DNA from: Spirochaetaceae bacterium
Lineage (GTDB): Bacteria; Spirochaetota; Spirochaetia; Treponematales; Breznakiellaceae
DNA length: 14,959 nucleotides
Direction: 5' to 3'
Assembly (NCBI GenBank): GCA_031275595.1
Contig: JAISOO010000058.1
Span: 1 to 14,959 of the forward strand
How positions within the stretch are numbered: position 1 is the first letter of the stretch; each line of letters opens with the position of its first letter. This document shows positions 1-14,959 of the stretch, piece after piece. Under the pieces are notes generated by a model. The model saw only the letters and a program-made list of their open reading frames with translations. It made no database searches and had not been told where the DNA came from. The position numbers and the translations under genes are program-made.

Positions 1-114
1 GCCTTTCCCAAAACCCGGTTGGTTTTGGGAAAGGCTTCCGAAAAAGCGGTCTAAAGCCCGCTTTTTCCAATAAATCTAAGGTTGCTTTCCCAAAAACTGA
101 AGTTTTGGGAAAGC
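1..114 (+). repeat. Palindromic intergenic repeat, copy 1 (full-length so far as visible)
   Basis: Three hairpins follow one another. Hairpin A1 pairs 1-15 with 21-35 (15 bp, GCCTTTCCCAAAACC and its complement). Hairpin B pairs 40-49 with 58-67 (GAAAAAGCGG / CCGCTTTTTC). Hairpin A2 pairs 84-95 with 103-114 (GCTTTCCCAAAA and its complement). The same three-part unit occurs inverted at 13147-13260, and the A2 segment there is an exact reverse complement. Shorter copies lie at 13461-13510 and 14892-14959. The repeat may continue to the left of the window. It sits just downstream of the exported-protein gene that ends at 149 on the minus strand. Confidence 0.93.
40..67. terminator. Candidate bidirectional intrinsic terminator (hairpin B of repeat copy 1)
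   Basis: The stem is A-tract-GCGG and CCGC-T-tract, so on either strand a GC stem is followed by five U residues. For minus-strand transcription it lies about 80 bases past the stop codon at 149-151. That suits the end of the series ispE to exported protein. Hairpin A2 (84-114) lies between the gene and this stem. The GC part of the stem is only four pairs, so termination strength is uncertain. Confidence 0.55.
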
Positions 115-148
115 CTCCACCCTTTGAAAGATGTTCGCACCGGTCTAC

Positions 149-5994: not shown

Positions 5995-6037
5995 TACGCT
6001 GCAACTCCTCTTATAGCCCTCCACGGGGCCGTGTTAT

Positions 6038-6061
6038 ACCTTTCTGGGACGACAGGGTTCG
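6038..6061. repeat. Duplicate of the tRNA-Gln 3' end (partial copy)
   Basis: These 24 bases are identical to 6195-6218, the last 18 bases of tRNA-Gln plus 6 bases beyond it. The two copies are 157 bases apart and in direct orientation. The match stops inside the T-loop, so this is not a functional tRNA. Direct repeats of tRNA 3' ends commonly mark integration sites, but the 133 bases between the copies are too short for an ordinary element. Confidence 0.85.
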
Positions 6062-6180: not shown

Positions 6181-6200
6181 GTCCACGGACATAAACCTTT

Positions 6201-6272
6201 CTGGGACGACAGGGTTCGAACCTGTGCATGCCGGAGCCAAAACCCGGTGGCTTACCACTTGCCTACGTCCCA
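6201..6272 (-). tRNA. tRNA-Gln (anticodon TTG)
   Basis: A 72-base cloverleaf folds fully by eye. The acceptor is TGGGACG/CGTCCCA, the D stem GGC/GCC with a GTGGTAA-type loop, the anticodon stem CCGGG/TCCGG, and the 7-base loop TTTTGGC with anticodon TTG. The variable loop is 5 bases and the T arm is ACAGG-TTCGAAC-CCTGT. The discriminator is G, as expected for glutamine. CCA is not encoded and must be added. It sits between spoVG and rplY and is probably cut out of a longer transcript. Confidence 0.96.
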
Positions 6273-7788: not shown

Positions 7789-7820
7789 TCAAGAGAAATA
7801 ATCTTAATATGGAGAAAACG

Positions 7821-8129
7821 ATGGTTCTGGATGAGACCATGAATACCAGGCGGATCCCCGCAGACGACTTAGGTTTGTCATATGAACTCGCCATGATTCC
7901 CCTGATGGATGAGCGCCATGACAAGTTTCCCGTTCCTTTTTTCATCTTCGATGATGAGGACGAAGATGAGGACGACCTTGACGAAGAAGATGATTTCGAC
8001 GACATGGACGACGGGTTTGATGACGACTTCGAGGATGATGATTTTGATGACGAAGACGATGATTACGATGACGAAGACGATGATTACGACTATGAAGAGG
8101 ATGTCGATTACGACGATTTTGAGGAATAG
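7821..8129 (+). CDS. Small protein with an extreme Asp/Glu C-terminal tail
   Basis: The family is not recognised. The 102-residue product has an N-terminal part (1-43) of ordinary composition ending in the hydrophobic stretch KFPVPFFIF. Residues 44-102 follow, in which 46 of 59 residues are Asp or Glu, none is basic, and Phe or Tyr recurs every few residues. The tail mixes GAT, GAC, GAA and GAG codons, so the acidic character looks maintained at protein level and not a simple DNA repeat. The ATG at 7821 is preferred over the one at 7809 because a GGAG lies six bases before it. It is the only plus-strand gene, has its own promoter, and converges on rsfS with 43 bases between stop codons. A DNA mimic, a chaperone of basic proteins or RNA, or a metal-binding protein are possible; none is shown. 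Confidence 0.85.
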   Translation: MVLDETMNTRRIPADDLGLSYELAMIPLMDERHDKFPVPFFIFDDEDEDEDDLDEEDDFDDMDDGFDDDFEDDDFDDEDDDYDDEDDDYDYEEDVDYDDFEE

Positions 8130-12811: not shown

Positions 12812-13123
12812 TTAGACGCCGGTGATATCCCCGATCTTAATGATCGAATATCCCTGACGATGCCCCTGTTTGCGACGGTAATCCTTTTTAGGCTTGTACT
12901 TAAAGACAATGATCTTCCGTTCCTTGCCGTGACGTTCCACCACCGCCTGAACCTTGGCGCCCGCTATATAGGGAGTCCCCACGGATACCGTATCCCCCGA
13001 ATGGAGGAGCACCGAATCTATGCCCAGTTCGGCCCCCGGTTCGGCATCTATCCTATCCACCTTTAACAGGGCGCCCTTTTCGGCCTTGTACTGCTTGCCT
13101 TTAAATTCCATTAAAACATACAT
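12812..13123 (-). CDS. rplU: 50S ribosomal protein L21
   Basis: Large-subunit protein binding 23S rRNA near domain VI. All 103 residues match the family: YVLMEFKGKQYKAEKG at the start, a central VLLHSGDTVSVGTPYIAGAKVQAVV part, and the KYKPKKDYRRKQGHRQGY signature near the C-terminus. Its ATG is preceded by AAGGA at about nine bases. It is the first gene of the operon running to rsfS. The leader is unusual because it carries a full palindromic repeat unit between the predicted promoter and the gene. Confidence 0.97.
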   Translation of the reverse strand: MYVLMEFKGKQYKAEKGALLKVDRIDAEPGAELGIDSVLLHSGDTVSVGTPYIAGAKVQAVVERHGKERKIIVFKYKPKKDYRRKQGHRQGYSIIKIGDITGV

Positions 13124-13146
13124 GAATCAACATCCTTAAAACCGAG

Positions 13147-13260
13147 GCTTTCCCAAAACTTCAGTTTTTGGGAAAGCTGCCTTGGATTTATATGAAAAAG
13201 CGGGCCTTGGACCGCTTTTTCGGAAGCATTTCCCAAAACCAACCGGATTTTGAGAAATGC
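13147..13260 (-). repeat. Palindromic intergenic repeat, copy 2 (full length, inverted)
   Basis: This is the reverse complement of copy 1 (1-114) over its whole length, with scattered substitutions. Hairpin A2 (13147-13177) is exact, hairpin B is 13194-13203 with 13212-13221, and hairpin A1 spans 13226-13260. In A1 the third stem pair is A-T where copy 1 has C-G, a compensatory change. It lies wholly within the predicted leader of the rplU operon, ending 23 bases before the rplU ATG. Confidence 0.93.
13194..13221. terminator. Terminator-like hairpin in the rplU leader (possible attenuator)
   Basis: On the minus strand the RNA would read GCGG, an 8-base loop, CCGC, then five U, the form of an intrinsic terminator. 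It lies between the predicted promoter (13281-13310) and rplU (13123), with related hairpins on both sides. If it works, transcripts would stop before the operon unless the structure is altered. Whether it terminates cannot be read from sequence alone. Confidence 0.4.
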
Positions 13261-13280
13261 TCAACCATATAGTATTTTAT

Positions 13281-13310
13281 ATCTTAGGATAAAACCTCAT
13301 GGTTCGTCAA
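13281..13310 (-). promoter_or_regulatory. Predicted promoter of the rplU-prp-rpmA-obgE-nadD-LCP-rsfS operon
   Basis: On the minus strand TTGACG (13310-13305, five of six) and TAAGAT (13286-13281, four of six) are separated by 18 bases. The start site would be near 13274, leaving a leader of about 150 bases filled by repeat copy 2. Only 23 bases lie between the repeat and rplU, too few for a separate promoter. Confidence 0.6.
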
Positions 13311-13460: not shown

Positions 13461-13510
13461 GATTTTTCCCAAAACCAGCCGGGTTTTGGGAAAAATCTTT
13501 GAAAAAACGG
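13461..13510 (+). repeat. Palindromic intergenic repeat, copy 3 (partial)
   Basis: Hairpin A1 is present as a 16-bp stem (13461-13476 with 13482-13497), with GATTTTTCCC in place of GCCTTTCCC and matching changes on the other arm. It is followed by only the left arm of hairpin B (GAAAAAACGG, 13501-13510); the right arm is missing where the NADH oxidase gene ends (13524). It is the likely 3' structure of the NADH oxidase transcript. Confidence 0.88.
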
Positions 13511-13523
13511 GCCTGACCCCGGC

Positions 13524-14858
13524 TCACGGGGCCGTAAGCGCCGCCATGGTGATATAGTTGTAAGGCTGGTTGAAGTGGGGGAGGAAGAAGATATCCAGCA
13601 GTTTAAGTTTATCGATGGTTACCTTTTCCTCTATCGCCAGGGAGAACAGGTGGATCCCCATGGAGATATCCTGATAGGATGCCATCTGGGCGCCCAATAC
13701 CCGGCGGGTCTTTTTATCGTAGACAATGCGGATTTTAACCTTGTGGTTATCTTCCTTAATAAAAGCCGGTTTTTGGGTGTCCTCAAATTGGGTGTAGAGG
13801 GGGGTATACCCCGCCTTTTCCGCGGCCGCGAGGTTGAGTCCGGTGGATACCATCTTGTACCCGTAGATACAGATCCCGTTGGAACCTTGCACCCCGATAG
13901 ATTCCAGGGGGGTGCCTCCGGCATTATGACCCGCCACCACCCCGCTGCGGACCGCGTTGGTCGCCAGGGCGATGTAGGCGGTATTCTCAACGGCGTTGCT
14001 GTACACCGTGGCGCAGTCCCCGATGGCATACACCCCCGGTTTGCTGGTTTCCTGCCTGAGGCTGACCTTGTAGGCGCCGTTGGCAAAGGTCTCCAGTTCA
14101 CCCGCGGCCAGGGCGGTGTTCGGCCGGAATCCGATGGCCATGATCACCATATCCACGGGGTACTCCCCCTTGTTGGTAACGATCCCCTGTACCTTGGAGG
14201 CCCCCTTTATCTCCTGTACCAACTCCCCGAAGTGCAGGCCTATGTTGTGGTCTTTAAGGACCTTGTCCATGTCCTGGGTGAACCAGTCGTCGTAATAGGT
14301 GGAAAGGCTGGTATTGGCCGCCTCAAAGAGCAGGACGTTTTTACCCCGGCGGCGCGCCGCTTCGGCTAACTCCACCCCGATATACCCCGCCCCCACCACG
14401 GCGATGGTTTTGATATCCCCCTGATCCATGAGGCTGTTGATCTTCTGACCGTCCTGGAAAAGTTTGGCGGACGCCACCTGGGGCAGGTCCAGGCCCTTGA
14501 TTTTGGGAATAATGGGGAGGGAACCCGTGGCCAGGATAAGTTTATCGTAGGATTCGGCGATCTCTTTTCCCGCCTTATCCCTGGCAAAGACCTTTTTCGC
14601 GCCGAAATCTATCTTCTCCACCGGGGTCTCCATGTGAACCGTCGCCTTTTTAGAAGTCAGAATGTCCTTGGAAGAATAAAAAAGTCCGTCGGGACCGTCG
14701 ATTTGCTGCCCCACCCACAGGGCCGTACCGCAGCCCAGGTAACTGATATTACTGTTACTGTCAAAAATGACGAGCTGGTTTTCCGGATAATTATCAAGAA
14801 TGGTATTAGCCGCCGCCGTTCCCGCGTGATTTGCCCCGATTAACACAATTTTTGCCAT
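13524..14858 (-). CDS. nox: NADH oxidase, FAD-dependent, Cys-based (probably H2O-forming)
   Basis: Flavoprotein that oxidises NADH with O2, in this subfamily normally to water. It regenerates NAD+ and removes oxygen in the cytoplasm. The 444-residue product shows the FAD-binding start [14 protein letters not shown] with His11, the redox-active Cys43 in [12 protein letters not shown], the NADH-binding loop [14 protein letters not shown], the second FAD motif GVYAIGDCA, and a typical C-terminal dimerisation domain. Having a single Cys and not a CxxxxC pair separates it from glutathione or lipoamide reductases. A CoA-disulfide reductase is the nearest alternative. The ATG at 14858 has GGAGG six bases upstream. 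It stands alone between two repeat copies and does not belong to the ribosomal operon. Such an enzyme suits a fermentative anaerobe or microaerophile exposed to traces of oxygen. Confidence 0.93.
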
Positions 14859-14891
14859 ATTTTACCTCCGAATGAAATTTGAAACACCAGA

Positions 14892-14959
14892 GCCTTTCCC
14901 AAAACCCGGTTGGTTTCGGGAAAGGCTTTGGAAAAAACGGCCCAAAGCCCGTTTTTTCC
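14892..14959 (+). repeat. Palindromic intergenic repeat, copy 4 (cut by the window end)
   Basis: Hairpin A1 spans 14892-14926 and differs little from copy 1. Hairpin B pairs 14930-14940 with 14949-14959. Its stem has ACGG/CCGT where copies 1 and 2 have GCGG/CCGC, again a paired change. It begins 34 bases upstream of the nox ATG and runs off the window. A promoter for nox is not visible between repeat and gene, so the repeat may lie inside the nox leader or end the gene beyond the window. Confidence 0.9.

What the first reader, a model, noticed from the sequence alone, without database searches (positions are those of the whole stretch)
1..114. A family of about 114-bp multi-hairpin intergenic repeats with covarying stems
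Four copies occur in 15 kb (1-114, 13147-13260 inverted, 13461-13510 partial, 14892-14959), all between genes. The unit is hairpin A1, hairpin B, hairpin A2. Stem positions change in pairs between copies: A1 third pair C-G versus A-T, GATTTTT-type arms with matching partners at 13461, and GCGG/CCGC versus ACGG/CCGT in B. Paired change suggests the fold itself is maintained, as in REP/BIME or MITE-like elements. The A arms resemble B-type terminators in having T/A tracts. I do not recognise the family by name.
Basis: partly seen in the sequence, partly recalled or inferred. Interest (0 to 1): 0.7.

Follow-up and report, generated by a model that had tools for sequence, protein, structure and literature searches.

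The report
Hairpin-ended mobile repeats in Treponema
The repeats are copies of a small jumping DNA element built of three hairpins, found in many Treponema genomes; its outer stems change from one lineage to another but still pair, while one loop and a short linker stay much the same.

Summary
The 119-bp unit (GAG...CTC; hairpins A1-B-A2) is in the window as one complete copy (13144-13262), two cut by the window ends (1-117, 14890-14959) and one truncated (13461-13515). It is a MITE, not a REP: 36 of 73 complete copies have an exact 4-bp target duplication (shuffled mean 1.5, maximum 7), and the complete window copy has an empty site in a relative. Its ends match insertion sequences with DDE_Tnp_1+DUF772 transposases, nearest to IS1182 but below that family's cut-off; arms match the local insertion sequence in only 5 of 14 genomes compared by eye. 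The model hits 164 of 190 genomes of the family. The paired change is real: in 20 chosen divergent copies 92.0% of stem cells pair against 73.5% shuffled. Outer arms are 66% conserved; A1 loop, linker and inner A/T arms 88-91%. Hairpins are better matched than the terminal repeats in 26 of 36 copies, worse in none. Why fold, loop and linker persist is open. A strong-terminator role is unlikely: the complete copy lies between promoter and start codon of rplU.

The parts
1..117 (+). Element copy 1; A1 hairpin 1-35, B hairpin 40-67, linker AAATCTAAGG 72-81, A2 hairpin 84-114, right end CTC at 115-117; first 2 bases lie outside the window
13144..13262 (-). Element copy 2, complete, 119 bp, in the rplU leader
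13140..13143 (.). Target duplication AACC, left
   Evidence: single copy (GGTT on the other strand) in L375
13263..13266 (.). Target duplication AACC, right
13461..13515 (+). Truncated copy: A1 hairpin 13461-13497 and the left half of B, hairpin 26 bp from the nox stop codon; hairpins with other arms lie at the same place in L196 and L197, none in L198
14890..14959 (+). Element copy 4, A1 and B, cut by the window end, 31 bp upstream of the nox start; not present in the three orthologous upstream regions read (L197 has another small hairpin there)
13281..13310 (-). Promoter-like TTGACG-18-TAAGAT of rplU, upstream of copy 2, recognisable by eye in the relatives L373-L375
   Evidence: (2 promoter-like sites found, 1.7 expected from shuffles)
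12812..13123 (-). rplU (L21) gene, named from general knowledge; orthologues found in 8 of 9 genomes searched
13524..14858 (-). nox-like NADH oxidase gene, named from general knowledge; orthologues at 94, 92 and 87% identity in 3 of 5 genomes searched

Best explanation
The unit is a non-autonomous DNA transposon (MITE), moved in trans by a DDE transposase of the IS1182/IS5 group that acts on ends of the form GAG...CAAAAC and cuts the target with a 4-bp stagger. Shown: 4-bp duplications, an empty site, presence/absence between relatives, insertion sequences with the same ends, many copies, spread over the family, covarying stems. Inferred: that these insertion sequences are the helpers. Also inferred: each terminal hairpin is a terminal repeat plus an inverted subterminal copy of it, inherited from hairpin-ended IS1182 elements or formed by duplication. 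The stems stay paired while the outer arms drift, probably through a mixture of template-switch correction of the palindromes and selection on a structure (cruciform or RNA) whose loop and linker are recognised.
For: Duplication: 36 of 73 copies, shuffled mean 1.49, maximum 7 of 1000; 3-bp 1 and 5-bp 0 of 73. Empty site in L375 for the window copy; no element between promoter and start codon in L374 and L376; another insertion in the opposite orientation in L373. The copy upstream of nox is absent in L196, L197 and L198. L273: 1244-bp insertion sequence with ends GAGCCTTTCCCAAAACT/AGTTTTGGGAAAGCCTC and one intact 377-aa frame. G001, a relative of the window's organism (nox 94%), has an insertion-sequence end GAGCCTTTCCCAAAACCC, the first 18 bases of window copy 4. 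Two of the four insertion-sequence copies in G142 have 4-bp duplications, TCTA and TTAA. In G362 an IS1182-like element has hairpin ends with GGGGCTGTCC, as has the local MITE. Covariation. Spread: 164 of 190 and 18 of 248 genomes; IS protein in 49 of 195.
Against: 37 of 73 copies lack an exact 4-bp duplication. Of 7 complete insertion sequences looked at, 2 have a 4-bp duplication, L273/L297 has 5 bp (ATCAT), four have none; the G362 one has none either. On the copies seen, element arms agree by eye with the local insertion sequence in G001, G011, G028, G362 and, loosely and on one truncated copy, G137, but not in G007, G021, G031, G093, G112, G116, G134, G142 (one weak copy) and G178: 5 of 14. 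In G048 an insertion sequence but no element was found. So no one-to-one helper is shown. The L273 insertion sequence has no significant hairpin at its ends. A plain MITE does not explain why the outer arms are less conserved than the A1 loop and linker.
Confidence: 0.8

Rival explanations
1. REP/BIME elements moved by RAYT Y1 transposases.
For: Intergenic palindromic repeats; G006 has 47 and G002 29 Y1_Tnp matches.
Against: 4-bp duplications; ends match DDE insertion sequences; G004 has 19 element matches and 0 Y1 matches, though it is a MAG and may be incomplete; among the 15 Y1 loci read, element-type hairpins lie near the gene only in L187 and L194.
Confidence: 0.04
2. Intrinsic terminators or insulators kept by selection, the repeats having spread as useful terminators.
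For: B has an A-tract, GC stem, T-tract plan on both strands; A hairpins are called terminator-like at 14927-14891 and 13177-13147 (6 such sites in the stretch against 3.2, sd 1.9, in shuffles, so no clear excess, and B was not called); 6 of the 12 G362/G332/G403 copies looked at have palindromic flanks of 3-6 bp in A and T runs, two of them apparently the same site in two genomes (no control run).
Against: Copy 2 lies between the promoter-like site and the start codon of rplU, and G001 has another element there; with crude gene calls only 3 of 63 copies lie between convergent genes against 84 of 456 gaps in the background.
Confidence: 0.1
3. The paired changes are mutational: template switching within quasi-palindromes makes the arms match, with no selection on the fold.
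For: Self-correction of imperfect palindromes is an established process (recalled); it explains why the hairpin match exceeds the terminal-repeat match in 26 of 36 copies with no reverse case.
Against: Does not explain the conserved A1 loop and linker. It is compatible with the rest of the covariation and is not exclusive of the best explanation.
Confidence: 0.4
4. The hairpins are landing sites: IS1182-type transposases target stem-loops, so palindromic ends breed nested and solo elements.
For: IS1272 of the IS1182 family is reported to replace stem-loops without duplications (PMC5678879: abstract, passages and section 21 read); 3 of 19 isolated hairpins have flanks continuing the palindrome by 4 or more bases (shuffled mean 0.29, maximum 2).
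Against: About half of the complete copies show ordinary 4-bp duplications; 5 of 19 isolated hairpins have them too. I did not search for insertion sequences inserted in A hairpins and met none.
Confidence: 0.15

Closest known systems
Bacterial MITEs in general (review PMC10969869: passages only)
   Same: Short, no gene, terminal inverted repeats, target duplication, insertion sequences with the same ends, many copies
   Different: Each end is itself a hairpin; outer arms vary more than the A1 loop and linker between lineages
BrickBuilt MITE of Porphyromonas gingivalis (PMC4596501: abstract and outline read)
   Same: MITE holding a 23-nt minisatellite; most G006 copies fetched hold about 22-bp tandem units in the A2 arm
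   Different: Other phylum and sequence; the window copies have no tandem array
IS1182 family / IS1272 (PMC5678879)
   Same: Nearest named transposase family; hairpin-prone ends; palindromic targets
   Different: IS1272 is reported to leave no target duplication; the L273 and L272 proteins score 85-88 bits against a cut-off of 270
REP/BIME with RAYT (PMC2817692: search listing only)
   Same: Intergenic palindromes in many copies
   Different: DDE-type ends and 4-bp duplications here
RU-1/RU-2/RU-3 elements (PMC2759123: search listing only)
   Same: 103-168 bp intergenic MITE-like repeats
   Different: Enterobacterial; no three-hairpin plan with changing arms known to me (recalled)

Membership tests
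MITE | Short, too short for a transposase, many copies | tested here: met
   119 bp; 8-69 BLAST matches, partial ones included, in each of 7 genomes
MITE | Terminal inverted repeats | tested here: met
   GAG...CTC ends; 83.1% of cells of the 14 cross-pairs form standard pairs
MITE | Target site duplication | tested here: met
   36 of 73 copies with 4 bp; empty site
MITE | Autonomous relative with the same ends | tested here: met
   L273 and insertion-sequence ends in other genomes; internal sequence not shared, so kinship rests on the ends, and local arms match in only 5 of 14 genomes
MITE | Mobilised by that transposase | not testable with these tools
   needs a transposition assay
REP/BIME with RAYT | Y1 transposase in the genome | tested here: not met
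   G004 has no Y1 match but 19 element matches; 6 of the 7 genomes do have Y1 matches
REP/BIME with RAYT | 20-40 bp palindromes with a GTAG or CGTC tag | tested here: not met
   unit is 119 bp ending GAG/CTC; size and tags as in the listing of PMC3733652
IS1182 family (presumed helper) | NCBIfam IS1182 score at or above 270 | tested here: not met
   84.8 and 88.1 bits for the L273 and L272 proteins
IS1182 family (IS in G362) | NCBIfam IS1182 score at or above 270 | tested here: inconclusive
   two pieces of a broken gene score 206 and 214 apart; searched apart, not joined
Any Rfam family | Score above gathering threshold | tested here: not met
   only a tRNA in the window

The most novel reading that the evidence does not exclude
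An old mobile element, spread beyond one family of Treponema, that is recognised by shape: the cruciform or RNA hairpins with their kept A1 loop (CTCGGTTAG-like), A2 loop (CTGAAG-like) and linker (AAATCTAAGG) are the lasting identity, and the outer arms are an exchangeable part that can be rewritten to fit whichever IS1182/IS5-group transposase is present, all four arms changing together. That would be structure-guided helper switching in a MITE.
Probability: 0.2. Interest if true: 0.8.

Novelty: new variant of a known kind. Interest (0 to 1): 0.6.

Why it matters
These repeats are very common in Treponema MAGs (probably of termite guts, from sample codes; recalled) and probably break their assemblies: the window begins and ends inside copies, and other contigs begin or end in them. 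A mobile element whose outer end sequence is its least conserved part, while the hairpin pairing, one loop and a linker are kept, runs against the usual expectation for MITEs and gives a natural series for testing whether some DDE transposases read DNA shape. Copies in the rplU leader, at different points in the window and in G001, give simple tests of effects on expression.

Tried and rejected
REP/RAYT: rejected. A loop-linker pairing (CTAA with TTAG/TTGG): tabulated, no association (of 41 classified copies, CT in the linker with A-type loop 17 and G-type loop 14). Of the 30 DDE_Tnp_1 loci of the first seven genomes, only L154 showed the element's ends on both sides of the frame. Gene context with a home-made ORF caller is crude, because frames were cut at the element, and is used only against a convergent-gene bias. 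Frames of 200 aa or more between pairs of ends in the first 150 loci were listed but not tested for transposases; none stood out. Phage and plasmid collections: no match; viral contigs: no pattern match. Literature: searches listed no paper on this family; most subscription papers are not held, so 'undescribed' holds only for those searches.

Rows dropped: of 44 full-length copies, 36 went into alignment A1; eight with long inserts or short forms were left out (L138, L143, L150, L055, L253, L126, L264, L227). One search omitted L120, L128 and L148, omitted L229 and L349; loci L200-L209 and L270-L345 were not searched with the model. Alignment A2 holds 20 copies chosen by me for divergent arms, so its covariation and conservation figures describe a chosen set. 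Control (a) of the pair counts does not remove relatedness.

Full report
What is there. The window carries four copies of one unit. With flanks from relatives, the complete unit is 119 bp, GAG...CTC: hairpin A1 (15 pairs), hairpin B (10 pairs), a 10-base linker AAATCTAAGG, hairpin A2 (12 pairs). Copy 1 folds 6.8 standard deviations better than shuffles. The window is itself bounded by copies: it starts two bases into one and ends in the B hairpin of another. Other contigs begin or end likewise, as expected where an assembler stops at a repeat.

Where it occurs. 119 lie in MAGs titled Treponema or Spirochaetaceae, whose sample codes I take to be termite or cockroach gut (recalled), and one in a goat-rectum Oscillospiraceae MAG with another loop. 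BLAST with copy 1 gave 8 to 69 matches, partial ones included, in each of 7 such genomes. No match in phage or plasmid records, no Rfam family.

It moves. Of 73 distinct complete copies, 36 have an exact 4-bp direct repeat at the flanks, against 1.49 expected and at most 7 in 1000 shuffles; 3-bp and 5-bp repeats are not in excess. The window copy 13144-13262 is flanked by AACC twice. In the relative L375 the same leader of rplU reads ...ttattatGGTTttaaggatg...ATG with GGTT once; L374 and L376 have no element between promoter and start codon (L374 has what looks like a remnant about 250-330 bp upstream), and L373 has another insertion in the opposite orientation in the same leader. The copy upstream of nox is absent from three orthologous sites, while the truncated copy behind nox has counterparts with other arms in two of those three relatives. 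In more distant genomes 4 of 20 copies looked at have 4-bp repeats.

What moves it. In genome G031 a 1244-bp insertion sequence (L273) has the element's ends and one intact 377-aa frame with DDE_Tnp_1 and DUF772. A protein search finds relatives, mostly pieces, in 49 of 195 genomes. Contig ends in ten genomes stop inside such insertion sequences and show their ends, among them G001, GAGCCTTTCCCAAAACCC, as in window copy 4. Four nearly identical copies in G142 are 1217 bp, two with 4-bp repeats. NCBIfam places the L273 and L272 proteins nearest IS1182 but far below its cut-off, then IS5. In G362 an IS with a broken IS1182-like gene has hairpins at both ends (z -5.3 and -3.0) and the same GGGGCTGTCC end as the local MITE, but no target duplication. 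The ends of L273 fold no better than shuffles. On the copies seen, local insertion sequence and element arms agree by eye in 5 of 14 genomes, loosely in one of these, and disagree in 9; so the helper relation is inferred, and a past or unseen helper is needed in many genomes.

The fold. On alignment A1, 91.4% of cells pair (84.1% shuffled) and 15 of 33 pairs show changes on both sides (10.2 shuffled, 5 of 500 as high). The arms are also terminal repeats, so I asked which match is kept. On the same 14 positions the within-hairpin pairing is 93.0% with 64 two-sided cells, the cross pairing of terminal repeats 83.1% with 32. Per copy, the hairpin is better matched in 26 of 36, equal in 10 and worse in none; leaving out the pair where A1 and A2 differ by consensus, better in 10, equal in 26, worse in none (sign test 0.002). 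On 20 divergent copies chosen from across the class, 92.0% of cells pair (73.5% shuffled), with two-sided changes in 18 of 27 pairs; RNAalifold finds the A1 hairpin and the outer seven pairs of A2 unaided, but not B. Conservation is 0.66 in the outer arms, 0.91 in the inner A/T part of the arms, 0.90 in the A1 loop, 0.88 in the linker, 0.75 in the A2 loop. The conserved inner part, CAAAAC, together with GAG may be all that a transposase needs, which speaks against my boldest reading. By eye the B hairpin is replaced by other hairpins in other lineages. Not every copy fits: decayed copies such as L228 and L236 are about two-thirds matched.

How it works. Established: a MITE with 4-bp duplication. 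Likely: trans-mobilisation by IS1182/IS5-group transposases. Open: why fold, A1 loop and linker persist. Template switching explains matched arms but not loops. A strong terminator role sits badly with the rplU leader, where the promoter-like TTGACG-18-TAAGAT lies upstream of the element. Stem-loop targeting, reported for IS1272 (PMC5678879: abstract, passages, section 21), is a lead: of 19 isolated hairpins 3 have palindromic flanks and 5 ordinary duplications, one counted in both.

Novelty. No listed paper describes it; two papers searched by term do not mention Treponema, a third mentions Spirochaetes only for CGTC repeats. As a kind it is a MITE. Hairpin ends with changing but paired outer arms and a kept loop and linker make it a new variant.

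Noticed in passing
G006 and G002 (loci L185, L186, L191, L192): 47 and 29 divergent Y1_Tnp (RAYT-like) matches in two genomes of 2.0 and 1.7 Mb, against 0-9 in the five others; no element ends around the four of these read.
   Followed up: partly
L250-L269 (G006): Most copies fetched from this genome carry tandem units of about 22 bp (CAAGCAAAGCTTGTCTCC) in the 5' arm of A2, in varying number.
   Followed up: no
L230-L249 (G003): Loops of A1 and A2 in many copies carry extra palindromes such as GCGAACTATGTTCGGCGAACACAGTTCGGG.
   Followed up: no
window 6035-6061 and 6192-6218: 27-bp direct repeat, 96% identical, the second copy overlapping a tRNA at 6201-6272 on the minus strand; may be a duplicated tRNA 3' end.
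   Followed up: no
window 7809-8129 (+): 106-aa frame, its second half almost only Asp, Glu, Tyr and Phe.
   Followed up: no
L381-L392 (G362, G332, G403): 6 of 12 copies have palindromic flanks of 3-6 bp in A and T runs and none of the 12 has a 4-bp repeat, as if they had replaced or entered a terminator hairpin.
   Followed up: partly
L045 1154-1192, L058 1221-1256: Isolated hairpins whose palindrome continues about 8 and 7 bases into the flanks.
   Followed up: no
L330-L342 and L345, without L343: Contigs that stop inside IS1182/IS5-like insertion sequences, showing lineage-specific ends.
   Followed up: partly
L374, about 250-330 bp upstream of rplU: Stretch resembling a decayed A2 end (ggcgttccgaaacatcagattttgaa), also similar to the L373 element.
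   Followed up: no
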